NCBI RefSeq assembly: GCF_017565705.1
Contig: NZ_JAGDYL010000006.1
Span: 62,001-126,000, forward strand
Reading direction: 5' to 3'
Source: Leucobacter ruminantium
Lineage (GTDB): Bacteria; Actinomycetota; Actinomycetes; Actinomycetales; Microbacteriaceae
Length of the DNA stretch: 64,000 nucleotides
The notes beneath the pieces were generated by a model, which searched no databases, was not told the origin of the DNA, and saw only the letters and a list, made by a program, of their open reading frames with translations. The position numbers and the translations under genes were made by a program. Of this stretch, positions 33,131 through 45,693 are shown one piece after another (the stretch's first letter is position 1; every line of letters starts with the position of its first letter).

Positions 33131-33987
<857 letters not shown>

Positions 33988-34833
33988 GTTTGTCGAACGG
34001 GTCTCGCCGACCTTCGTGCGGGTGACCTTCGGCGGCGAGGATCTCCGCGAGATCGGCAACCCCGAGCGCACACTCGACCAGCGCATCAAGCTGATCTTCC
34101 CGCCCGCGTCGGGGGAGCTGCCCCGACTCGCAGACGACGCCGATTGGTACGCGGCGTGGCTCGCGATCCCGGAGGCGGAGCGGGGATCGATGCGCACCTA
34201 CTCGATCCGGGATCTGCGCGTCGAGCCGGACGGCGCGACACGGCTCGTCGTCGACTTCGTGCTGCACCTCGCCCCGGGGGCGACGGGACCCGCATCGCTC
34301 TGGGCGAGCCGCGCCGCCGCCGGCGACGAACTGCTCATCATCGGACCGCGCCGAGGTCGCCTCGACGGGGGCGGCATCGAGTTCGAGCCCGGCGAAGCCG
34401 CCGGCGTGCTGCTCGCGGGCGACGAGACCGCCGCGCCCGCCATCGCGCGCGTGCTCGAGGAGCTCCCGGCCGACGCGCGGGGCATCGCGTTCATCGAGGT
34501 GCCTGAGGCTGGAGACCGCCTTCCCGTCGCGGCGCCCGCCGGCGTCGAGCTGCGCTGGCTGCCGCGCGGCGAGGCGCTGCACGGCACGTCGCTCATCCCG
34601 GAAGTGCTCGCGCACCTGGGGGAGCGGGCGGAGCCCGCGATCGAGGACGTCGCGGGTGAGGAGCTGCTCTGGGAGACGCCGCAGTACTCGGGCCTCGGCG
34701 AGGAGATCGGCCCCCGGCACGACCGGCACGACCGCTACTACTGGATCGCGGGGGAGAGCGGGGTGGTGACCACGCTGCGCCGCCACCTGGTGCGCGAGCT
34801 CGGGATCGCGCGCTCGCAGGTCGCGTTCATGGG

Positions 34834-35505
34834 CTACTGGCGTCGCGGCGTGGCGATGAAGGGCTGAGCCCCGCGCCCGGGCCTGAACGACGACACCGTC
34901 GGCTCGCCCGCGATCCAGAAACGCCACGGGAACGCGGGCCCTCCTGCCTTGCCCGCCACGCCGACGCGCGGACCGCGCGCGATCTCGCGGGGCTCCTCGC
35001 CCGCCCCGGGGAGTCGCAGGGCGAACGGTGCCGCGAGCAGATCGAGCCCGTCATGGGTCTCGCGCCGCACCCCGAGCGCGGAGGCGAGGTTTCCCGGCCC
35101 GCGGGCGAGCATGCGGGGCTCGACGGGGATCCCTCGCCTCGCCGAGCGGCGCAGCTGCGCGAGTTCGGATCCCTCGACCACCTCGCCGGCCCTGATGAGC
35201 ACCCCCGATGCCGTGCCCGCGGGGGAGCAGACCAGGTTCAGCGCGAAGTGCATGCCGTAGCTGAAGTAGACGTAGGCGTGACCGGGCGGGCCGAACATCG
35301 AGGCGTTGCGCTCGGTGCGACGGTCCTTCGAGTGGGATCCCGCGTCGTAGGGCCCCGCCGTGCCCACGCCGTGATAGGCCTCGACCTCCGTGATGCGCAC
35401 GGCGACCGCCCCGTCGGGGGAGTCGAGCCGCAGCGTCGCCCCGAGCAGGCGCGGGGCCACCTCGAGAGCGTCGGGCAGGAAGAAGTCGCGCTGCATGCGC
35501 TCCAT
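34834..35505 (-). CDS. 3-methyladenine DNA glycosylase (Aag/MPG type)
   Basis: Base-excision repair enzyme that removes alkylated purines. The protein begins MERMQRDFFLPDALEVAPRLLGATL and has the family's RITEVEAYHG (catalytic Glu), GPYDAGSHS, the Tyr-rich GHAYVYFSYGMHFALN wall, the GPGNLASALG loop and RVGVAGKAGGPAFPWRF. With start ATG 35505 it has 223 residues, near the family length. The frame stays open to 35616, but those residues are not conserved in character. An internal ATG at 35496 is also possible. Confidence 0.88.
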   Translation of the reverse strand: MERMQRDFFLPDALEVAPRLLGATLRLDSPDGAVAVRITEVEAYHGVGTAGPYDAGSHSKDRRTERNASMFGPPGHAYVYFSYGMHFALNLVCSPAGTASGVLIRAGEVVEGSELAQLRRSARRGIPVEPRMLARGPGNLASALGVRRETHDGLDLLAAPFALRLPGAGEEPREIARGPRVGVAGKAGGPAFPWRFWIAGEPTVSSFRPGRGAQPFIATPRRQ

Positions 35506-36096: not shown

Positions 36097-36855
36097 CTAC
36101 CGCCCGGACTCGGGGTCGTAGCCGGCGTCGATGAGGGAGGCTGCGCGCTCGGTCTGCTGCGCGAAGTCGAGCATGTCGGTGCGGAGCCCGAGGTCGCGGT
36201 CGACGTGCAGCGCCATCGAGTGCGCCGCGCTGCGCACGTCGCGCGCCTCGATCGCCTCGAGCACGGCTCCGTGGTCGCGGTGCATCGTCTCGATGGTGGT
36301 GCCGAGGATGACGCGCCCCTCGGTGCTCGCGCGTTGCAGGATCGAGAGCACGCCGATGTAGAGGTCGAGCAGCAGCTTGCTGCCGCTGGCCTCGACGACG
36401 AGCAGGTGGAAGGCGCCGGGGGTGGCGCTGCGGTCGCAGGTATCGGTGGTGCCCTCGCCCGCGGCGGTCGACCGCGCGTAGGCGTCGCGCAGCGCCTCGA
36501 GCTGCTCCTCGCTGCGGTTCACGGCGGCGTGCTGCGCCGCCTCGATCTCGAGGGATCGGCGGTAGACGAGCACCTCCTCGAGGTCGTGCTCGGCGAGGAA
36601 CTCGGTGAGGATGGTGCTGACCGGGGTGCGCGAGCGGACGAAGGTGCCGACGCCGGGCACGGTCTCGAGCATGCCGAAGGCCGCGAGGGATCGCACGGCC
36701 TCGCGCACGGTGGACTTGCCGACGCCGATCAACTCCATGAGCTCGGCTTCCTTCGGGATCAGCGATCCGACGGCCCATTCGCCGCTGGAGATGCGTCCGC
36801 GGAGGAAATCGAGCGTGTCGCGTGCTTTCTGAGAGCCGCGAGTCGAGCTTGTCAT
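36097..36855 (-). CDS. GntR/FadR-family transcriptional regulator (FCD domain)
   Basis: 252 residues. An N-terminal winged helix-turn-helix of GntR type (LRGRISSGEWAVGSLIPKEAELMELIGVGKSTVREAVRSLAAFGMLE, with GVGTFV closing the wing) is followed by an all-helical FCD ligand domain with Asp/His positions (FHLLVVEASGS; HRDHGAVLEAIEARD). Such regulators usually bind small carboxylates. It is divergent from hemH, and the 170-bp gap holds a 27-bp site shared with other heme and iron promoters, so it is a candidate regulator of heme genes. AGGGG lies six bases before ATG 36855; a -10 TATAGT is at 36892-36897 on the minus strand. Confidence 0.88.
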   Translation of the reverse strand: MTSSTRGSQKARDTLDFLRGRISSGEWAVGSLIPKEAELMELIGVGKSTVREAVRSLAAFGMLETVPGVGTFVRSRTPVSTILTEFLAEHDLEEVLVYRRSLEIEAAQHAAVNRSEEQLEALRDAYARSTAAGEGTTDTCDRSATPGAFHLLVVEASGSKLLLDLYIGVLSILQRASTEGRVILGTTIETMHRDHGAVLEAIEARDVRSAAHSMALHVDRDLGLRTDMLDFAQQTERAASLIDAGYDPESGR

Positions 36856-36970: not shown

Positions 36971-36997
36971 CAGATCAGATCTTATACATCAGATCTA
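36971..36997 (+). promoter_or_regulatory. Candidate operator upstream of hemH
   Basis: 27-bp element: half CAGATCAGATCT (36971-36982), spacer TATA, half CATCAGATCTA (36987-36997). It agrees at 21 of 27 positions with the site between hemA and hemE, and its right half is repeated exactly, in reverse, before efeU. It covers the expected -35 of the hemH promoter. Confidence 0.6.
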
Positions 36998-37012
36998 CAG
37001 GCGACCTGGTGC

Positions 37013-37018
37013 TAGCGT
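37013..37018 (+). promoter_or_regulatory. Leaderless -10 element for hemH
   Basis: TAGCGT lies seven bases before the hemH ATG at 37026, with no ribosome-binding site. The candidate operator ends 15 bases upstream. Confidence 0.5.
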
Positions 37019-37025
37019 TCCAGGC

Positions 37026-38123
37026 ATGACGGAAAACGCCCTGCCCTACGACGCGCTCCTGCTCTGCTCGTTCGGCGGCCCGAACGGCCCCGACGACGTG
37101 ATCCCCTTTCTCAAGAACGTGACCCGCGGCAAGGGCATCCCCGAGGAGCGCCTCGCCGAGGTCGGCGAGCACTACCACCATTTCGGCGGCCGCAGCCCGA
37201 TCAACGAGCAGAACCTCGCGCTCGTCGCGGCGCTGCGCGACGAGCTGGAGCGGCGAGGGACCGCGCTGCCCGTGATCTGGGGCAACCGCAACTGGCCGCC
37301 CTACACGGTCGACACGCTGCGCGACGCGAGCGCCTTCGGGGCGAAGCGGGTGCTCGTCATCGTCACGAGCGCGTACGCCTCGTACTCGGGCAGCCGCCAG
37401 TACCGCGAGCACCTCGCCGCCGCGATCGCCGAACTCGGGGCCGAGGCGCCCGAGATCGACATCGTGCGCCCCTTCTTCAACGACCCGGGCTTCATCCGGG
37501 GCAACCTCGAAGCGATCGAGGAGGCGGCGGCCCGTCTCGAGGGAGGCCTCGACGGCGCGCGCATCGTCTACGTCACGCACTCCATCCCCGACACGATGCA
37601 GGAGGCCTCCGCTGTCACCGGTCCCGGCTACCGGGAGCAGCACGAGGACGTGCGCGCCACGATCGACGCCGCGCTGCACGAGCGCCACGGGATCGAGATC
37701 TCATCGTCGCTCGCCTACTGCTCGCGTTCGGGCAGCCCGCACGTGCCGTGGCTCGAGCCCGATGTGAACGACCACCTCGAGGAACTCGCGGCGCAGGGCG
37801 TGAAGAAGGTGATCATCGCGCCGATCGGCTTCATCTCCGACCACATGGAGGTCGCGTTCGACCTCGACGTCGAGGCGCTCGAGACGGCCGCCGAGCAGGG
37901 CATCGCCGCCGTGCGCGCGGGCACCGTCGGCGTGCGCCCCGTCTTCGTCTCGGGCCTCGTGGATCTCGTGCTGGAGCGCGCGGCTCGCGAGCGCGGCGAA
38001 GCCGTAGAGCCGCGTGTCGAGGGATCCCTCCCCGCGCTTCCCGACGTCGCGCCCCCGGGCAGCTGCCGCATGCGCCACGGAGAGGTGACCGGGATCCCCG
38101 TGATCGCCGGCACCGCCGACTGA
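37026..38123 (+). CDS. hemH: Coproporphyrin III ferrochelatase
   Basis: Inserts ferrous iron into the porphyrin. With HemQ next door the substrate is expected to be coproporphyrin III (CpfC), as in other actinobacteria. The 365 residues open LPYDALLLCSFGGPNGPDDV, have HHFGGRSPINEQ, the conserved SAYASYSGSRQYREHL, VTHSIPDTM near residue 185 and the acidic metal-path region GFISDHMEVAFDLD. ATG 37026 was preferred over an upstream in-frame start because the predicted transcript begins at about this base. hemQ follows 62 bases later. Confidence 0.95.
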   Translation: MTENALPYDALLLCSFGGPNGPDDVIPFLKNVTRGKGIPEERLAEVGEHYHHFGGRSPINEQNLALVAALRDELERRGTALPVIWGNRNWPPYTVDTLRDASAFGAKRVLVIVTSAYASYSGSRQYREHLAAAIAELGAEAPEIDIVRPFFNDPGFIRGNLEAIEEAAARLEGGLDGARIVYVTHSIPDTMQEASAVTGPGYREQHEDVRATIDAALHERHGIEISSSLAYCSRSGSPHVPWLEPDVNDHLEELAAQGVKKVIIAPIGFISDHMEVAFDLDVEALETAAEQGIAAVRAGTVGVRPVFVSGLVDLVLERAARERGEAVEPRVEGSLPALPDVAPPGSCRMRHGEVTGIPVIAGTAD

Positions 38124-38185
38124 GGCCCCGAGCGCGGACCACGAGCACCGAAGCACGCCGAAGCAACCAGACGAGGAGCAGACGA

Positions 38186-38920
38186 ATGACGAATGAGACG
38201 TCAGCGGAGCGGCCGCAGATCGACCACAGCGGGATCGCGGAGCGGATCAATGCCGATGTGAACTACACGATGTACGCGGTGTTCCGCATCGAGCGCGACA
38301 GCGGCCGCCTCGGCGTCTCGCCCGCCTGGCGCGAGATTGCGGGCGGCCTGCTCCGCGAGCTCGACGCGATCGAGGGGCTGACCACTCGCGGCTGGTACGA
38401 CGTCGCGGGCTTCCGTGCCGACGCCGACGTGCTGGTCTGGTGGCATGCGCCCACCTCCGAGGCGCTGCAGGAGGCGTATCGCGCCGTGCTCGAGTGGGGC
38501 GGCGGCCGCCTGCAGCCGGTGTGGTCGAACATCGGCGTGCACCGAGCCGCGGAGTTCAATCGCGGGCACGTGCCGGCGTTCCTCGCGGGGGAGGAGCCGC
38601 ACGGCTACCTCTGCGTCTATCCCTTCGTGCGCGGGCGCGAGTGGTATCTGCTGCCCGACGAGGAGCGCCGCGAGCTGCTGCGCGAGCACGGCGCCGCGGC
38701 GCGCGACTACGGCGACGTGCTCGCCAACACCGTCGCCTCGTTCGGACTCGGCGACTACGAGTGGCTGCTGGCCTTCGAGGCCGACGATCTCACGCGCATC
38801 GTCGACCTCATGCGCGAGCTCCGGGCGACGGGTGCGAGGCGGCACGTGATCGAGGAGACGCCGTTCTTCACGGGCCCGCGCCGTGCCCCCGAGGAACTGC
38901 TCGCCCGCGCGCTCCGCTGA
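38186..38920 (+). CDS. hemQ: Coproheme decarboxylase
   Basis: Last step of the coproporphyrin-dependent pathway: peroxide-driven decarboxylation of coproheme to heme b (also called ChdC). The 244 residues include the diagnostic YPFVRGREWYLLPDEER near residue 145, which contains the radical-forming catalytic Tyr, and the C-terminal LMRELRATGARRHVIEETPFFTG. ATG 38186 has the ribosome-binding site GAGGAG. It is cotranscribed with hemH by position. Confidence 0.96.
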   Translation: MTNETSAERPQIDHSGIAERINADVNYTMYAVFRIERDSGRLGVSPAWREIAGGLLRELDAIEGLTTRGWYDVAGFRADADVLVWWHAPTSEALQEAYRAVLEWGGGRLQPVWSNIGVHRAAEFNRGHVPAFLAGEEPHGYLCVYPFVRGREWYLLPDEERRELLREHGAAARDYGDVLANTVASFGLGDYEWLLAFEADDLTRIVDLMRELRATGARRHVIEETPFFTGPRRAPEELLARALR

Positions 38921-38957
38921 ACGCCTCTTCGACCTCGCCTTCCGGGTGAACGGGAAG

Positions 38958-39005
38958 TGAGCGCAGCCTCACCTTGCTTGCGCGCACGAGGAATCGGCGT
39001 AGCTT
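38958..39005 (+). promoter_or_regulatory. dps promoter with a possible iron box
   Basis: A -10 TAGCTT (39000-39005) with TTGCGC as possible -35 (38978-38983). Just upstream, TGAGCGCAGCCTCACCTTG (38958-38976) fits 13 of 19 positions of the DtxR/IdeR consensus (CTCACCT core). A perfect GTTCGCACGAAC palindrome lies in the leader at 39017-39028. Either could mediate control; both are weak inferences. Confidence 0.4.
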
Positions 39006-39045
39006 TGAACGTGACAGTTCGCACGAACGAAAGGGGAACCACTCG

Positions 39046-39534
39046 ATGGCTACCAAGCAGATCAACATTCCCGCAGCGCAGGGCGACCTGCAGCGCCCCA
39101 CCGGCGTCGCGCAGTACCTCAGCCCGGTGCTGCACGACCTCATCGCCCTCGGCGTCAACGGCAAGCAGGCCCACTGGCACGTGCGGGGCGAGAACTTCAT
39201 GGGCGTTCACGAGTTCCTCGACCAGGTCGTGACGCACGCGCAGGACGCGGCCGACGAGGTCGCGGAGCGCGTGGTGGCCCTCGGGCTGCCCGTCGACGGC
39301 CGCATCGGCACCGTCGCGGCCCGCACCACGACGCCGGAGATGAGCGACGGCTTCCAGCAGTCCGACATCACGGTGCGCGAGGTCGTCGCACAGCTCGACG
39401 CGACGCTGGAGACGCTGTACGCGGCGGTGAAGGGGCTCGACGAGATCGACCTCGTCAGCCAGGACATCGTCATCGCGATCGCGCAGCAGCTCGACAAGGA
39501 TCGCTGGTTCCTGTTCTCGCACTACGCGGAGTAG
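39046..39534 (+). CDS. dps: Dps-family DNA-binding ferritin-like protein
   Basis: Forms 12-mers that oxidise and store iron and protect DNA. 162 residues with the ferroxidase signature: HWHVRGENFMGVHEFLDQVVTHAQDAADEVAERV near residue 45, supplying the inter-subunit His/Asp/Glu ligands, and a C-terminal DRWFLFSHY. ATG 39046 follows AAAGGGG. The frame is open upstream to 38974, but that part precedes the promoter's likely transcription start. It sits between the heme and iron-import genes, which fits its role, and is followed by a strong terminator. Confidence 0.93.
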   Translation: MATKQINIPAAQGDLQRPTGVAQYLSPVLHDLIALGVNGKQAHWHVRGENFMGVHEFLDQVVTHAQDAADEVAERVVALGLPVDGRIGTVAARTTTPEMSDGFQQSDITVREVVAQLDATLETLYAAVKGLDEIDLVSQDIVIAIAQQLDKDRWFLFSHYAE

Positions 39535-39570
39535 GGGGGGTCGAGTCGCCGACTCGAGGTCGCACACCCG

Positions 39571-39614
39571 AAGGGGCGGGAGCGGATTCACTCGAATCCG
39601 CTCCCGCCCCTTTT
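39571..39614 (+). terminator. Strong intrinsic terminator after dps
   Basis: A perfect 17-bp stem (39573-39589 with 39594-39610) around the loop ACTC, GC-rich at the base and followed by TTTT. It is the most classical Rho-independent terminator seen in the window and separates dps from the efe operon. Confidence 0.93.
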
Positions 39615-39633
39615 GTGCGCCGAAAACCGCGAA

Positions 39634-39683
39634 TAGATCTGATGAAGTGTGCTAGGTTCTACTCGTAAGGCATGCCTTACCTA
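39634..39683 (+). promoter_or_regulatory. efeUOB promoter with two regulatory elements
   Basis: TAGATCTGATG (39634-39644) is the exact reverse complement of the 11-base half found before hemH and hemE. A -10 TAGGTT lies at 39653-39658. Just downstream is a perfect 16-bp palindrome GTAAGGCATGCCTTAC (39665-39680). The 19 bases 39666-39684 agree with the DtxR/IdeR consensus at about 13 positions. The operon may therefore answer both to iron and to the heme-linked regulator. Confidence 0.6.
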
Positions 39684-39712
39684 CATCTCACGATAGACGG
39701 AAGGCTGCGCAG

Positions 39713-40636
39713 ATGATCGGAACCCTGATGATCGGCCTGCGCGAGGGCCTCGAGGCCGCGCTCGTGGTGAGCGTGCTGCTCGCCTACGTGAAGCGCATCG
39801 GGCGCCCCGACGCGGCACGCAAGATCCGGCTCGGCGTCGCGGCCGCGGTGCTGCTCTCGCTCGTCATCGGCGCGGTGCTCACCTACGGCGCCTACGGGCT
39901 CTCCTTCCGCGCCCAGGAGGCGATCGGGGGATCCCTGTCGATCATCGCCGTCGCCATGGTCACCTGGATGGTGTTCTGGATGCTCCGCGCCGCGCGCGGG
40001 CTCAGCGGCGAGCTGCGCGAGCAGGTCGACCGCGCGCTCATCGGGGGCGGCTGGGGCGTCGCCGCCATCGGCTTCATCTCGGTCGGGCGGGAAGGGATCG
40101 AGACGGCGCTCTTCATCTGGGCCACCACTCGCGCCAGCGAGATCTCGCCGCTCGTCGGCTTCCTCAGCGCGGTCTCTGGCATCGTGCTCGCGGTGCTCCT
40201 CGGCTGGGCACTGTTCCGCGGCATGCTGCGGATCGACCTGACGAGGTTCTTCCGCTGGTCCGGCGTGCTGCTCATCGTCTTCGCGGCCGGCGTGCTCGCC
40301 TACGGCGTGCACGACCTGCAGGAGGCTGCCTTCCTGCCCGGCCCCTTCGCCGAGGCCCCGGCCGGCGCCGCGCCGCTCCTCGCCGCCTGGTACGGCGACG
40401 CCGCATGGGCCTTCCGGATCCCTCACATCATCGCCCCCGACGGCTTCGTCGGCGCGCTGCTCAAGGGCGCCTTCGGCTTCTCGCCCGAGATGACGAAGCT
40501 CGAACTGCTCGTGTGGGCCCTCTACCTCGTCCCGACCCTCGTGCTGTTCCTGCGCCGCTCGCTCGCACAGGGACGCGCGACCCGCGAACGCCGCGCCGCC
40601 GCGCCGGCCGTCGCCCTCTCGAAAGGAACCCCGTGA
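39713..40636 (+). CDS. efeU: Iron permease EfeU (FTR1 family)
   Basis: Membrane channel for iron, 307 residues and about seven helices. The two FTR1 iron-binding REGxE motifs are present: REGLEAALVV near residue 10 and GREGIETALF near residue 125. It works with EfeO and EfeB in the EfeUOB system. The C-terminal tail is basic. ATG 39713 follows GGAAGG. The stop overlaps the efeO GTG. Confidence 0.94.
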   Translation: MIGTLMIGLREGLEAALVVSVLLAYVKRIGRPDAARKIRLGVAAAVLLSLVIGAVLTYGAYGLSFRAQEAIGGSLSIIAVAMVTWMVFWMLRAARGLSGELREQVDRALIGGGWGVAAIGFISVGREGIETALFIWATTRASEISPLVGFLSAVSGIVLAVLLGWALFRGMLRIDLTRFFRWSGVLLIVFAAGVLAYGVHDLQEAAFLPGPFAEAPAGAAPLLAAWYGDAAWAFRIPHIIAPDGFVGALLKGAFGFSPEMTKLELLVWALYLVPTLVLFLRRSLAQGRATRERRAAAPAVALSKGTP

Positions 40637-41850
40637 ATCCACGCACCTCCCGCCGCACTCCGCGCCTCGCCGCGCTCGGTTCCCTCGCCGCGACAGCGGC
40701 GGGAGCCCTGCTGCTCACCGGCTGCGTTCCCAACGCGGCGCCCGACGCCCAGAGCATCGCGGTCACAGCGAGCGACACCGACTGCGCGGTCGAAGCCCCG
40801 AAGGCCGAGAGCGGGAACGTCACCTTCAGTGTCACCAACGAGGGCACGAAGGTCAACGAGTTCTACGTGCTCGGCGGCAACGCGCTCACCATCGTCGGCG
40901 AGGTCGAGAACATCGCGCCGGGGGCGACGCGCGAGCTCACCGTGCAGGTGAACCCCGGGGAGTACTTCACCAGCTGCAAGCCGGGCATGATCGGCGCCGG
41001 CGTCGGCCAGGCCGCGTTCACCGTCACCGGCGAGGCGCTGGAGACCTCGCCCGAGGAGGACGCGGTCGTGGAGCAGTACATCGCCTACGTGAAGGCGCAG
41101 ACCGAGGAGCTCGTGCCGCAGGTCGAGGCCCTCGTCGAGGCCTACAAGGCGGGCGACGACGAGCGGGCCAAGTCGCTCTTCCCCGTGGCTCGCATCAGCT
41201 ACGAGCGCATCGAGCCGACCGCCGAGCAGTTCGGCGACCTCGACCCGAAGATCGACTACCGCAAGCCGGGAGCCGACGAGGAGGGACTGCCGTTCACCGG
41301 GTTCCACCGCATCGAGATGGACCTCTGGCACGACGCCGCGGTCGCGAACGGCGACTACGCGGGCGATCCCGATCTGACCCCGCTCACCCCGGAGCAGCGC
41401 GCCGAGCTCGGCGATCGGCTCGTCGCCGACATCACGGAACTCAAGGAGAAGGTGGCCTCGCCCGACTTCGGTCTCACGCTCGCCGACATCACCGAGGGCG
41501 CCAAAGGACTGCTCGACGAGATCGCGGCCCCGGACGGCAAGCTGCCGGGCGAGGAGAACGAGTTCGCGCACACCGACCTCTGGGACTTCACGGCCAACGT
41601 CGAGGGATCGTACGTGGCCTTCGACACCGTGCGCGGTCTCGCCGAGGCGAACGGCTCCGAGGATCTCGTCGCCGAACTCGACACCGCCTTCGACGACATG
41701 TTCGCGCTGCTCGGCACCTACGGCTCCTACGAGAAGGGCTTCGTCTTCTACGACACCGTCGGCGAGGGCGAGCGGCAGGAGCTCGCGGCGAAGCTGAACG
41801 CGCTGAGCGAGCCCATGTCCAGGCTCACCGCGGCGGTCGTGAAGAACTAG
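40633..41850 (+). CDS. efeO: EfeO iron-uptake lipoprotein
   Basis: Extracytoplasmic iron-delivery protein of EfeUOB. The 405 residues begin with a signal peptide ending in the lipobox LLLTGC (Cys near residue 32). An N-terminal cupredoxin-like domain (residues ~40-140) and a C-terminal M75/imelysin-type helical domain follow, with the metal-binding HxxE motif in GFHRIEMDLWHD near residue 225. The GTG start overlaps efeU (GTGA). Both domains are present, as in the enterobacterial EfeO rather than the short EfeM form. Confidence 0.94.
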   Translation: MNPRTSRRTPRLAALGSLAATAAGALLLTGCVPNAAPDAQSIAVTASDTDCAVEAPKAESGNVTFSVTNEGTKVNEFYVLGGNALTIVGEVENIAPGATRELTVQVNPGEYFTSCKPGMIGAGVGQAAFTVTGEALETSPEEDAVVEQYIAYVKAQTEELVPQVEALVEAYKAGDDERAKSLFPVARISYERIEPTAEQFGDLDPKIDYRKPGADEEGLPFTGFHRIEMDLWHDAAVANGDYAGDPDLTPLTPEQRAELGDRLVADITELKEKVASPDFGLTLADITEGAKGLLDEIAAPDGKLPGEENEFAHTDLWDFTANVEGSYVAFDTVRGLAEANGSEDLVAELDTAFDDMFALLGTYGSYEKGFVFYDTVGEGERQELAAKLNALSEPMSRLTAAVVKN

Positions 41851-41855
41851 CGGGC

Positions 41856-43190
41856 ATGAACGGAGCGATGGAACCCGCGGGCGGGGAGCCCGAGGAAGTC
41901 GAGGGCGAGGGATCCGGAGAGACCGGTGCCCTGCGCCCATCGCGGCGCGGACTGCTCGGCCTGCTCGGGGCGGGAGTGGCCGGCCTCGCGGTCGGCGGAG
42001 CGGGCGGCGCCGCGATCGCCGCCTCGGCGGCCGGCGGCCAGACCGCGGCGGGCCGCTCGTCGGTCGTGCCGTTCCACGGCGAGCATCAGGCCGGCATCGT
42101 CACGCCCGCCCAGGATCGGCTGCACTTCGCGGCCTTCAACATGGTCTCCGGCTCCTCCCGCGACGATCTCATCCAACTGCTCCGCGACTGGAGCGAGGCC
42201 GCCGAGCGGCTCACGCAGGGCAGGCCGCTCGGCACCGGCCTCGAGCCGGGCGACGCGCTGCTGCCGCCCGACGACACGGGCGAGGCCGAGGGGCTGCAGG
42301 CCGGAAACCTCACGCTCACCTTCGGGCTCGGGCGATCCCTCTTCACCGGATCGGGGGAGGGAGGCTCCGAGGATCCCTACGGTATCCGCTCGCAGCTGCC
42401 CGCGGCCTTCGAGCCGCTGCCGTCGTTCGCATTCGACCTGCTGGAGCCGGCGCAGAGCGGAGGCGACCTCTGCGTGCAGGCCTGCGCCGATGACCCGCAG
42501 GTCGCCGTGCACGCGATCCGCAACCTCGCCCGCATCGCCGTGGGTCGTACGCACCTGGCCTGGAGCCAGCTCGGCTTCGGCCGCACCGCCTCGACGTCGC
42601 GCAGGCAGGACACGCCGCGCAACCTCTTCGGCTTCAAGGACGGCACGATGAACGTGATGTCCGACGAGACGGAGGCCCTCGCCGAGCACGTCTGGGTCGG
42701 CGACGAGGCTCCCGCATGGCTGCGGGGCGGCAGCTACATCGTCACCCGGAAGATCCTCATGACGATCGAGGCGTGGGATCGCGCGTCGCTCGCGGAGCAG
42801 GAGCGCACTTTCGGCCGCACCAAGCTCGCGGGCGCGCCGCTCACGGGCGGCGGCGAGTTCGACCATCCCGACTTCGCGGCCGAGCGCGACGGCGCCCCGG
42901 TCATCGACATGGCCGCGCACGTGCGTCTGGCGCACCCCGATCAGAACGGCGGCACGCGCATCCTGCGGCGCGGTTACAACTACGTCGACGGCTCCAACGA
43001 GCTCGGGCAGCTCGGGGCCGGGCTGTTCTTCATCTCGTTCCAGAGGGATCCCGCGGCGTTCGTGCGGCTGCAGCGATCCCTGAAGCACGATCTGCTGGGC
43101 GAGTACATCAGGCACATCTCCTCCGGCCTGTGGGCCGTTCCGGGGGGCGTGCGCCGCGGCGAGTTCGTCGGGCAGCGGCTGTTCGACTGA
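41856..43190 (+). CDS. efeB: EfeB, DyP-type heme peroxidase
   Basis: Secreted dye-decolorising peroxidase of the EfeUOB system, thought to act on ferrous iron or heme. The 444 residues carry a twin-arginine-like signal (RRGLLGLLGAGVAGL, Arg pair near residue 29). The DyP distal motif GFKDGTMN is near residue 262, and the C-terminal proximal His region AAHVRLAHP is near residue 355. It requires heme, made by the flanking genes. It starts five bases after efeO and converges with hemA. Confidence 0.94.
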   Translation: MNGAMEPAGGEPEEVEGEGSGETGALRPSRRGLLGLLGAGVAGLAVGGAGGAAIAASAAGGQTAAGRSSVVPFHGEHQAGIVTPAQDRLHFAAFNMVSGSSRDDLIQLLRDWSEAAERLTQGRPLGTGLEPGDALLPPDDTGEAEGLQAGNLTLTFGLGRSLFTGSGEGGSEDPYGIRSQLPAAFEPLPSFAFDLLEPAQSGGDLCVQACADDPQVAVHAIRNLARIAVGRTHLAWSQLGFGRTASTSRRQDTPRNLFGFKDGTMNVMSDETEALAEHVWVGDEAPAWLRGGSYIVTRKILMTIEAWDRASLAEQERTFGRTKLAGAPLTGGGEFDHPDFAAERDGAPVIDMAAHVRLAHPDQNGGTRILRRGYNYVDGSNELGQLGAGLFFISFQRDPAAFVRLQRSLKHDLLGEYIRHISSGLWAVPGGVRRGEFVGQRLFD

Positions 43191-43212
43191 GAGCGGTCGG
43201 AAGCCGCTCCCG

Positions 43213-44451
43213 TCAGGCGTCGGCCCCGATCCCGAAGAGCGCCGCGGTCGCGCTGCGCGCCTCGTCGGCACGACCGGCCCTGCCCAGCGCGCGGATACGC
43301 TCGCTCGGCTCGTGCAGCAGCCGGCCGGTGAAGCGGCGCAGAGCGCTCTCGATCTCGGTGCTCGACCCGGCGTCGCCGTCCCGCTCGGCGCGCGGGCCGC
43401 GCCTCGCGCGGCAGAGCTCGTCCTCCAGAAGACCGAGCACGTGCTCACGCAGCGTGACGAGAGTCGGCAGCGCCTCGCGCTCGGCCTGCGAGGCCGCGAA
43501 CTCGACGGCGGCCTCCCGCACGAGCCTGCGGGCCTCGGCGCCCGCGCTGAGCTCGGGGATGGGGGCGTGCCGCGCGATGGCGTCGATGTCGAGCAGTTCG
43601 ACGCCATCGAGGGATCCGACGGCCGGGTCGACGTTGCGGGGCATGCCGAGGTCGAGGAGGAGCCGGGGGCGCGCTTCGAGTCGGGCGAGGTCGGGCGCCG
43701 TGATCAGCGGATCGCTGACGCTGCTGCACGCGATGAGGAGGTCGGCCGTGGCGAGCGCATGACCGAAGCCCTCGGGCGGCACGGCGCCGATACCGCGGGC
43801 GTCGGCGAAAGCGGCGGCGCGGCCCGAGGGGGAGTGCACCGCGATGCGCTGCGCGCCCCGCGCGTTCAGCGCGGCCACCGTCGCTCCCGCGTAGGCGCCG
43901 GTGCCGATGAGCAGCACGCGCGCCTGGGCCCACGATTCGATGCGGCGCTCGGCGAGCAGCAGCCCGAGGCGCACGAGGGATCGGCCCTCGCCCTGGATGC
44001 CGGTGCGGTTCTTGACGTCGCGGGAGACGCGGTGCGCCGCCTGGAACAGGCGCTCGAGCGGGTCGGAGACGGTGCCCGCGCGGTGTGCGGCGGAGTGGGC
44101 GCGGCGCACCTGCCCGGCGATCTCGCCCTCGCCGACGGCCGCCGACTCGAGACCGCACGCGACCGCGAACAGGTGCTCCGCGGCGAGCTCGTCGGTGTGC
44201 ACGCCCAGCGCTTCGGAGAGTTCGGCCGTTTCGACCCCGGCCGCCTCGGCGATCCGGCCGACCGAGACATCGGGGTCGCCCTCTCGCAGGTCGAGGTAGG
44301 CCTCGAAGCGGTTGCAGGTCGCGACGATCACGGATCCTCGCGCGAAGCCCGGTTCGGCGAGGGATCGGGCGATCTCGGCCGAGCGTCGCTCGAGGTGCTC
44401 GAGCAGCGGGATCGGGGTCCTGCGGTAGTCAGCGGAAAGGCAGAGCAGCAT
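43213..44451 (-). CDS. hemA: Glutamyl-tRNA reductase
   Basis: First committed step of C5-pathway heme synthesis: reduces glutamyl-tRNA(Glu) to glutamate-1-semialdehyde. The 412 residues carry the nucleophile Cys46 in ATCNRFEAY, the LFAVACGLESAAVGEGEIAGQVR block, an NADPH loop VLLIGTGAYAG and a C-terminal dimerisation region. It is divergent from hemE and shares the intergenic operator. A minus-strand -10 TATCCT (44515-44520) predicts a leader of about 60 bases. It converges with efeB; a small hairpin (43191-43209) lies in the 22-bp gap. Confidence 0.94.
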   Translation of the reverse strand: MLLCLSADYRRTPIPLLEHLERRSAEIARSLAEPGFARGSVIVATCNRFEAYLDLREGDPDVSVGRIAEAAGVETAELSEALGVHTDELAAEHLFAVACGLESAAVGEGEIAGQVRRAHSAAHRAGTVSDPLERLFQAAHRVSRDVKNRTGIQGEGRSLVRLGLLLAERRIESWAQARVLLIGTGAYAGATVAALNARGAQRIAVHSPSGRAAAFADARGIGAVPPEGFGHALATADLLIACSSVSDPLITAPDLARLEARPRLLLDLGMPRNVDPAVGSLDGVELLDIDAIARHAPIPELSAGAEARRLVREAAVEFAASQAEREALPTLVTLREHVLGLLEDELCRARRGPRAERDGDAGSSTEIESALRRFTGRLLHEPSERIRALGRAGRADEARSATAALFGIGADA

Positions 44452-44514
44452 GTGAAGATGGTTCTCGACGGCCTCGCGGCCCGGTGGTTCGGTGGATTTC
44501 TGGTCGCTGGGATG

Positions 44515-44563
44515 AGGATAGTCCGTAGATCTGATCTATCTCATCAGATCTATAAGCTAGCAT
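44515..44563. promoter_or_regulatory. Divergent hemA/hemE promoters with a shared perfect dyad operator
   Basis: A perfect inverted repeat TAGATCTGAT (44526-44535) and ATCAGATCTA (44543-44552) with a 7-bp spacer. It ends five bases before the hemE -10 TAGCAT (44558-44563) and covers the -35 position of the hemA promoter (-10 TATCCT at 44515-44520, minus strand). One bound protein could control both directions. It is the most symmetrical of the three related sites. Confidence 0.75.
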
Positions 44564-44571
44564 TCCATCCG

Positions 44572-45693
44572 ATGAACGATCTCACCGACACCCGGTCCGC
44601 CGCGCTTCCCGCCGGACACCCGCTGCTCGACGGCCGTACGGCCGATGCCCCGCTCGTGCGCGCCCTGCGCGGGGACCGCCCCGAACGCACCCCGGTCTGG
44701 TTCATGCGTCAGGCAGGCAGGTCGCTGCCCGAATACCGCGAGCTGCGCGCGGGCATCCCGATGCTCGCGGCATGCCTCGACTCCGCTACGGCGTCGGAGA
44801 TCACCCTGCAGCCGGTGCGCAGGCACGGCGTGGACGCGGCCGTCTTCTTCAGCGACATCGTGGTGCCGCTCCTGCTCGCCGGGGTAGACGTCGAGCTCGT
44901 CGCGGGCCGCGGGCCGGTGTTCGCCGACCCCGTGCGCACGGCGGCCGACGTCGCGCGCTGCAGGCGGGAGCACCCCGTCGAGCGCCTGCGCGAATCGTTC
45001 GGACCGGTCGCAGACGCCGTGGCCGCGAGCGTCGCCGAGCTCGGCGGAACGCCGCTCATCGGCTTCGCCGGAGCACCCTTCACCCTGGCGGCCTATCTCG
45101 TCGAGGGCGGCCCGTCGAAGGACCACCTGCGGGCTCGCTCGCTCATGCACTCCGATCCCGAGGCCTGGAGCGAACTGCTCGCTTGGGTCGCCGAGCTGAG
45201 CGGTGCCTTCCTCGAGGCGCAGGTGCGCGCGGGCGCGAGCGCCGTGCAGCTCTTCGACTCGTGGGCCGGCTCCCTGAGCGCGGTCGACTACCGCGAGCGC
45301 GTCGCTCCCGCCTCGCGCGCCACGCTCGCGCCCGTGCGCGACCTCGTGCCCGTGATCCACTTCGCCGTCGGCTCCGGCCACCTGCTCGAGGAGATCGCAT
45401 CGGTCGGCCGAGACACAGACACGGACACAGACACCGCCGTGACCGTCGGCGTCGACTGGCGCACACCGCTCGACGAGGCCAGCCGCCGCCTCGGCGATGC
45501 GGTGCCGCTGCAGGGCAACCTCGACCCGGCCTACCTCGACGCTCCCGCGCCCGTCCTCGAAGCGCACCTCGACGACGTGCTGCGGCGCGGTCTCCGGGCA
45601 CCCGCCCACGTGCTGAATCTCGGCCACGGCGTGCCGCCTACGGCCGACCCGACGGTGCTCACGCGCATCGTGGAGCTCGCCCATGCCCGATGA
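44572..45693 (+). CDS. hemE: Uroporphyrinogen III decarboxylase
   Basis: Converts uroporphyrinogen III to coproporphyrinogen III. The 373 residues include the N-terminal signature PVWFMRQAGRSLPEYRELR near residue 40, the ILQPVRR-equivalent TLQPVRRHGVDAAVFFSDIVVPL, GFAGAPFTLAAYLVEGG and the C-terminal LNLGHGVPPTADP. The leader is at most a few bases, so ATG 44572 is close to the transcription start. A short run of acid-rich codons (DTDTDTDT) near residue 282 looks like a small in-frame repeat expansion. Confidence 0.96.
   Translation: MNDLTDTRSAALPAGHPLLDGRTADAPLVRALRGDRPERTPVWFMRQAGRSLPEYRELRAGIPMLAACLDSATASEITLQPVRRHGVDAAVFFSDIVVPLLLAGVDVELVAGRGPVFADPVRTAADVARCRREHPVERLRESFGPVADAVAASVAELGGTPLIGFAGAPFTLAAYLVEGGPSKDHLRARSLMHSDPEAWSELLAWVAELSGAFLEAQVRAGASAVQLFDSWAGSLSAVDYRERVAPASRATLAPVRDLVPVIHFAVGSGHLLEEIASVGRDTDTDTDTAVTVGVDWRTPLDEASRRLGDAVPLQGNLDPAYLDAPAPVLEAHLDDVLRRGLRAPAHVLNLGHGVPPTADPTVLTRIVELAHAR

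What the first reader, a model, noticed from the sequence alone, without database searches (positions are those of the whole stretch)
36971..44552. A shared CATCAGATCTA operator links heme synthesis and EfeUOB iron import
The exact 11-mer CATCAGATCTA occurs before hemH (36987-36997) and hemE (44542-44552), and in reverse before efeU (39634-39644). At hemA/hemE it forms a perfect 10-bp inverted repeat with 7-bp spacing; the hemH site keeps 21 of 27 positions. By chance an 11-mer of this composition should occur about once or less in 64 kb, and all three copies lie just before start codons of functionally linked genes. The sites overlap predicted -35 regions. I know of no described actinobacterial heme regulator with this operator. 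The divergent GntR/FCD protein beside hemH is the best candidate, but this is inference.
Basis: partly seen in the sequence, partly recalled or inferred. Interest (0 to 1): 0.82.

Follow-up and report, generated by a model that had tools for sequence, protein, structure and literature searches.

The report
Heme and iron-uptake operator in Leucobacter
A short repeated DNA sign sits before the genes that make heme and import iron in Leucobacter bacteria and close relatives, and a little-studied GntR-type regulator encoded beside it probably reads it, which would make it a new kind of heme/iron switch.

Summary
Comparison redefines the operator: not one 10-7-10 inverted repeat but 13-bp near-palindromes (YASATC-W-GATSTR) 14 bp apart, two or three per hemH and hemA/hemE promoter, and one at efeU. 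Of 54 genomes of the genus (Leucobacter) 43 carry the tandem form, at 59 places, 58 of them at hemH or hemA/hemE. The GntR/FCD gene beside hemH is found full-length in 41 of these 43 genomes and in 0 of the 11 others; in a family sample of 299, all 8 genomes with the gene have the site, against 5 of the other 291. Site-less genomes cluster on a tree, so independent events are few. In some relatives this gntR follows iron-transporter genes divergent from hemH-hemQ, with the array between. The unit core matches the operator of the GntR repressor LutR. I infer a GntR/FCD repressor of heme synthesis and iron acquisition. Against sole control: genomes without this gntR keep variant units at hemE (8 of 8) and some at efeU, so a paralogue may also bind. 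Effector and sign are unknown; no such regulator appeared in the papers searched.

The parts
36971..36997 (.). hemH operator: two 13-bp units (36971-36983 CAGATCAGATCTT, 36985-36997 TACATCAGATCTA), 14 bp apart, between gntR and hemH
   Evidence: of 35 distinct hemH promoters read, most fetched because they carry the site, 33 have two or more units and 30 have a pair 14 bp apart
37013..37018 (+). putative -10 box TAGCGT of hemH, 15 nt after the array
   Evidence: read by eye; similar place in relatives
44526..44552 (.). hemA/hemE operator: two units (44526-44538 TAGATCTGATCTA, 44540-44552 CTCATCAGATCTA), 14 bp apart
   Evidence: tandem array in 38 of 38 genus hemE loci outside the 8 loci of gntR-less genomes, in 0 of those 8 (46 of the 48 hemE matches)
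44558..44563 (+). putative -10 box TAGCAT of hemE, 5 nt after the array
   Evidence: read by eye; compare
44564..44576 (+). third, weaker unit TCCATCCGATGAA overlapping the hemE start codon
   Evidence: 1 mismatch to TTCATCNGATGAA; similar in several relatives
39634..39646 (+). efeU operator: single unit TAGATCTGATGAA, 6 nt before putative -10 TAGGTT (39653-39658)
   Evidence: a unit just before the -10 box in 19 of 36 efeU promoters of the genus, elsewhere in the promoter in 7, none in 10 (judged by eye)
39666..39679 (.). palindrome TAAGGCATGCCTTA in the efeU promoter, DtxR/IdeR-like by recall
   Evidence: read; similar palindromes in most efeU promoters printed
36097..36855 (-). GntR/FCD regulator (P1), 252 aa, candidate reader of the operator
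   Evidence: Pfam FCD 1e-16 and GntR 2.8e-16; alignment and model
   Evidence: open frame; no family search was completed for it
38186..38920 (+). hemQ (coproheme decarboxylase, my assignment), 244 aa
   Evidence: open frame; no family search was completed for it
   Evidence: no family search was completed for it
40633..41850 (+). efeO, GTG start
41856..43190 (+). efeB

Best explanation
The motif is the operator of a heme/iron regulon controlled by the GntR/FCD protein encoded at 36097-36855. Shown by sequence: 13-bp near-palindromic units (core ATC-W-GAT) in arrays with a 14-bp period at hemH and hemA/hemE and as a single unit at efeU, conserved across the genus, and a GntR/FCD gene whose presence follows the tandem form. 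Inferred: each unit is bound by one GntR dimer through its winged helix; neighbouring dimers bind together; bound dimers cover the -35/-10 region and repress coproporphyrin-pathway heme synthesis together with EfeUOB (in relatives also a FecCD-type iron transporter). The FCD domain, which keeps three metal-site histidines, would bind a heme-pathway or iron-status ligand, most likely so that repression holds while heme or iron is sufficient; DtxR would act separately at efeU.
For: Rarity and placement in the whole genome. Genus: 43 of 54 genomes have the tandem site, reversed-pattern control 0 in all 54; 58 of the 59 places lie at hemH or hemA/hemE (coordinates compared by me), the other lies beside gntR at a contig end. 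Co-occurrence in the genus: full-length orthologue (65% identity or more) in 41 of 43 site-bearing and 0 of 11 site-less genomes; in 12 of 30 gntR loci there is no unit within 200 bp upstream of gntR, and in 4 of these (G304, G291, G014, G315) the gene is on another contig or about a megabase from the sites. Family sample of 299, window genome included: orthologue (59% or more) in 8, all 8 with the site; site in 5 of the other 291 (one search scored at most 9 candidates per genome). Context: gntR follows iron ABC-transporter genes, divergent from hemH-hemQ (L145, L159, L161) or hemQ (L142), with the array between (Pfam run on L145 and L161 members only). 14-bp spacing: 37 unit pairs at 14 bp, 10 at 28 bp. 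LutR operator TCATC-N1-GATGA. FCD and GntR domains; H150, H195, H217 invariant in 30 aligned proteins.
Against: The 8 hemE loci of genomes without the orthologue all keep two variant units (TTCATC-N-GATGAA type; CACGTCTGATGAA and TACATCTGATGTA in G344) flanking the hemE -10 box, so something else reads related sites there. At efeU a unit is present in 4 of 8 genomes without an intact orthologue (G312, G326, G344, G339) and in 22 of 28 with it, so the efeU unit follows the gene only weakly. G202 and G151 have the site at hemH without this gntR at E 1e-55. G328 and G339 have the site and no gntR match (fragmented drafts). Site-less genomes are clustered on the hemE tree: 3 label changes, one origin not excluded by starred branches. 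No binding, expression or effector data.
Confidence: 0.62

Rival explanations
1. A paralogous GntR/FCD protein (P2, own genome C9:29261-29956, about 50% identical, near-identical recognition helix) or another relative is the main or an additional reader, and P1 reads mainly the tandem form.
For: All 7 genus members of the family sample have a match of 49-51% besides or instead of P1, two of them (G096, G208) without P1; the four checked are P2 orthologues. P1-less genomes keep units at hemE and some at efeU. G202 has P2 but no P1 and carries the hemH site. G344 has a 51-55% GntR beside a SIP gene.
Against: P2 presence does not follow the tandem form; no unit was found in the six P2 loci scanned; P1, not P2, is linked to hemH and the iron transporter.
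Confidence: 0.25
2. The operator belongs to an unrelated regulator encoded elsewhere, and P1 merely shares its phylogenetic distribution.
For: Co-occurrence rests on few independent events; no systematic profiling of other regulators was possible.
Against: Gene linkage, transporter context, and a core shared with the operator of a GntR repressor.
Confidence: 0.12
3. Same regulator, but an activator rather than a repressor (not exclusive of the others).
For: The promoters lack a consensus match; array-to-(-10) distances of 15 and 5 nt differ by about one helical turn (read).
Against: Arrays lie over the -35/-10 region and a third unit covers the hemE start; at the SIP gene of this genome the unit ends 3 bp before the start codon; LutR, NanR and DgoR are described as repressors.
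Confidence: 0.2
4. Chance or a conserved non-regulatory repeat.
For: None beyond the shortness of the efeU site.
Confidence: 0.01

Closest known systems
LutR of Bacillus subtilis (GntR family)
   Same: Operator TCATC-N1-GATGA has the same ATC-N-GAT core and symmetry as one unit; GntR DNA-binding domain (PMC11734750, passages)
   Different: Regulates L-lactate use; [quoted passage not shown] its DNA-binding domain (8PQM) is only a modest match (E 5.7e-05)
NanR of Escherichia coli (GntR family)
   Same: Several dimers packed on short adjacent repeats (PMC8012715, passages)
   Different: Repeats GGTATA, sialic acid regulon; cooperativity uses a 32-residue N-terminal extension
HrrSA and ChrSA of Corynebacterium
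   Same: Actinobacterial control of heme genes such as hemA, hemE, hemH and hemQ by heme or iron status (PMC10991733, passages)
   Different: Two-component systems, not GntR
DtxR/IdeR
   Same: Iron control; a DtxR-like palindrome (motif recalled) stands in the efeU promoter
   Different: Different palindrome, present also in efeU promoters without the unit
Irr of alpha-proteobacteria
   Same: Joint control of heme and iron genes (recalled; PMC3413700 seen only as listing and start of abstract)
   Different: Fur family (recalled), unrelated to GntR

Membership tests
GntR superfamily, FadR subfamily (FCD) | N-terminal GntR winged helix and C-terminal FCD domain | tested here: met
   PF00392 2.8e-16 and PF07729 1e-16, both above the curated cut-off; the 50 PDB fold matches listed are led by GntR-family proteins, with modest TM of 0.32-0.46
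GntR superfamily, FadR subfamily (FCD) | FCD metal-site histidines (common, not universal) | tested here: met
   H150, H195, H217 invariant in 30 aligned proteins and aligned with histidines of 6az6; spacing like TM0439 and Ps5454 (PMC7674646, passages). Metal binding itself not tested
GntR superfamily, FadR subfamily (FCD) | Typical operator GT-N3-AC (typical, not defining: exceptions are listed in the source) | tested here: not met
   Core is AT-CWG-AT, as in LutR; consensus from PMC4494728, passages
LutR orthologue | Orthology and lactate-gene targets | tested here: not met
   Targets are heme/iron genes; 8PQM is only a distant match. Full-length LutR was not compared
LutR orthologue | ATC-N-GAT core in the operator | tested here: met
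HrrA/ChrA response regulators | Receiver and LuxR-type output domains (recalled) | tested here: not met
   The candidate has GntR and FCD domains only
NanR-like cooperative repeat binding | Several dimers on adjacent repeats | not testable with these tools
   14-bp phased units are suggestive
Heme-sensing regulator | Direct heme binding | not tested
   No data; the cysteine near position 140 is not invariant

The most novel reading that the evidence does not exclude
The FCD domain of this regulator senses heme, a porphyrin intermediate or iron itself, making it a GntR-family master switch that balances heme synthesis with iron import, an actinobacterial counterpart of Irr, reading 14-bp phased arrays of LutR-like palindromes.
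Probability: 0.33. Interest if true: 0.78.

Novelty: new variant of a known kind. Interest (0 to 1): 0.62.

Why it matters
In the review passages I saw, known actinobacterial control of heme synthesis is limited to Corynebacterium two-component systems and DtxR. A GntR/FCD regulon joining the coproporphyrin pathway to iron import would add a new sensor family to heme control, give FCD domains a new ligand class to test, and offer a compact operator grammar (14-bp phased palindromes) with three ready test promoters.

Tried and rejected
The 10-7-10 inverted repeat was dropped as the working model because relatives vary the inner arms while keeping ATC-W-GAT cores 14 bp apart. A role throughout the family was rejected: of 62 hemE loci from named genomes, only the three Leucobacter ones have a match with up to 6 mismatches. 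Of the five family sites outside P1-bearing genomes, two are at hemH (G202, G151); G093 lies beside an M20 peptidase and another GntR gene, G020 before a PadR-like gene and G229 inside an open frame, and these three are treated as chance. A second efeU element after the DtxR-like palindrome (ACATCACATGT-like) also occurs without the gntR and was not assigned to this regulator. My note after that the unit in gntR-less genomes overlaps the hemE start codon was incomplete: one unit lies 5 nt before the -10 box in most, a second follows the box at the start codon. SIP as a fourth target is tentative: a unit ends 3 bp before the start in this genome (L214/L221) and similar ones stand in some relatives, but many SIP promoters lack it and it overlaps the ribosome-binding region.

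That came from reading 31 of 36 efeU promoters and leaving out G339. Reading the other five showed units in G312, G326 and G344, which lack the orthologue.

Errors of mine: the hemH, hemQ, dps and efeO query proteins were one base out of frame; they still marked homologous loci, but their identity figures are not used; hemH was redone in frame and four context loci with all genes. One search also read alignment rows as DNA (warnings), which did not affect the listed hits. In one search the start codon of several hemE rows was misplaced; one search repeats the count without start calling. The 'P1+' rows include G339, in which no gntR was found; G332 and G336 were not.

Full report
Observation. 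The 11-mer CATCAGATCTA is present at the three stated places; 100 dinucleotide shuffles average 0.01. The 27-bp inverted repeat is perfect at 44526-44552 and has 2 mismatches at 36971-36997. In the whole 3,305,448-base genome the pattern with up to 3 mismatches occurs only at these two promoters, and the 10-mer ATCAGATCTA only at the hemH, efeU and hemA/hemE promoters.

What the operator is. Related sites show a finer unit: a 13-bp near-palindrome, YASATC-W-GATSTR. At hemH and hemA/hemE two such units stand 14 bp apart. In 35 distinct hemH promoters (a biased sample: most were fetched because they carry the site) 33 have two or more units and 30 a pair 14 bp apart; unit pairs fall at 14 bp 37 times, at 28 bp 10 times and at other distances 6 times, and several promoters have three units. 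With one mismatch allowed the unit occurs at 9 places in the genome (reversed control 2): 5 are the hemH, hemA/hemE and efeU units, one ends 3 bp before the start of a siderophore-interacting protein gene, and three look unrelated.

Conservation. The genus is inferred to be Leucobacter because records of Leucobacter coincide in position with genus loci. Of 54 genus genomes 43 carry the tandem site; the reversed pattern gives 0 in all 54. The 27 loci newly fetched by that search are all at hemH or hemA/hemE; comparing all 59 places with later calls, 58 are, and the last, in G336, lies beside gntR at a contig end. At hemE, 38 of 38 loci outside the gntR-less genomes have the tandem array and 0 of 8 in gntR-less genomes (46 of the 48 hemE matches). 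Of 62 hemE loci from named genomes, only the three Leucobacter ones show it.

Iron genes. Of 36 efeU genes found in the genus, 19 have a unit just before the putative -10 box, 7 have one elsewhere in the promoter and 10 have none (31 promoters, five; judged by eye). A unit is present in 22 of 28 genomes with an intact orthologue of the gntR and in 4 of 8 without, so at efeU the link to this particular protein is weak. In other genera and in G333, G335 the array lies between hemH (or hemQ) and genes of an iron-type ABC transporter (L142, L147, L148, L159, L161; permease not resolved in L145). Pfam was run on L145 (Peripla_BP_2, ABC_tran) and L161 (FecCD) members only; the others are named by resemblance.

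The regulator. The protein at 36097-36855 has GntR and FCD domains. Full-length orthologues of 65% identity or more are in 41 of 43 site-bearing genus genomes and 0 of 11 site-less ones. The two exceptions, G328 and G339, are fragmented drafts. G340, site-less by the tandem pattern, has a gntR that reads in two frames and a single unit at hemH; a sequencing error cannot be excluded. In the family sample of 299, window genome included, orthologues of 59% or more are in 8 genomes, all with the site; 5 of the other 291 have a site, three of them in unrelated contexts. One search scored at most 9 candidates per genome. In 12 of 30 gntR loci there is no unit within 200 bp upstream. In five of these gntR is about 3 kb from the hemH site and in one (G341) directly upstream of it; in four (G304, G291, G014, G315) it is on another contig or about a megabase from the tandem sites. 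In L142, L145, L159 and L161 gntR follows the transporter genes in one direction, facing away from hemH-hemQ or hemQ. Caution: on a hemE tree the 8 gntR-less genomes need 3 changes and are clustered, so the large counts reflect few events.

Family comparison. LutR, a B. subtilis GntR repressor, binds TCATC-N1-GATGA (PMC11734750, passages), the same core. The usual FadR-subfamily operator has GT and AC 3 nt apart, and an arginine in the HTH prefers the G (PMC4494728, passages); here the corresponding residue, placed by my comparison with a recalled FadR sequence, is proline or alanine, which fits AT in place of GT but is not a test. NanR shows that GntR dimers can pack on adjacent repeats (PMC8012715, passages). 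Three FCD histidines are invariant in 30 aligned proteins; in TM0439 such histidines hold a metal (PMC7674646, passages). The model has mean pLDDT 81 and pTM 0.61; its best PDB matches are GntR-family proteins.

What does not fit. All 8 hemE loci of gntR-less genomes keep two units of the TTCATC-N-GATGAA type (other flanks in G344) flanking the hemE -10 box (G208 completed). Some protein must read these, perhaps the paralogue P2: all 7 genus members of the family sample have a match of 49-51% besides or instead of P1, and the four checked are P2 orthologues; but no unit was found in the P2 loci scanned. G202 and G151 have the hemH site without the orthologue at the threshold used.

Mechanism. 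Shown: operator grammar, targets, co-occurrence of the tandem form with the gene. Inferred: dimers on each unit, joint binding, repression by covering the -35/-10 region, and an FCD ligand tied to heme or iron status. The sign and the ligand are unknown.

Literature. Searches listed no GntR regulator of heme synthesis among the titles and abstract starts shown; in the review PMC10991733 the word 'GntR' has 0 occurrences in the main text (passages). The library lacks most subscription journals, and I did not read the listed papers beyond the passages named.

Noticed in passing
39681-39697: Downstream of the DtxR-like palindrome in the efeU promoter a second element (ACATCACATGT-like in relatives) is conserved, also without the gntR; its reader is unknown.
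   Followed up: partly
L214:1501-1513 (own genome C1:4430-4442): A unit TACATCTGATGAA ends 3 bp before the start of a siderophore-interacting protein gene; similar units stand in some relatives, many lack it.
   Followed up: partly
L149:5552-6332 (genome G340): The gntR orthologue reads in two frames and the hemH promoter keeps one unit only; decay or sequencing error.
   Followed up: partly
L297:6262-6948 (own genome C9:29261-29956): Paralogue P2, a conserved GntR/FCD gene, with a MerR-like gene beside it in L297, L299 and L153 and an ABC transporter beside it in G088.
   Followed up: partly
L281:9550-10649 (genome G310): hemE reads in two frames in this genome.
   Followed up: no
33920-34867: Another siderophore-interacting protein gene in the window, after open frames that look like an iron ABC transporter by eye; no unit of this operator was found there.
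   Followed up: no
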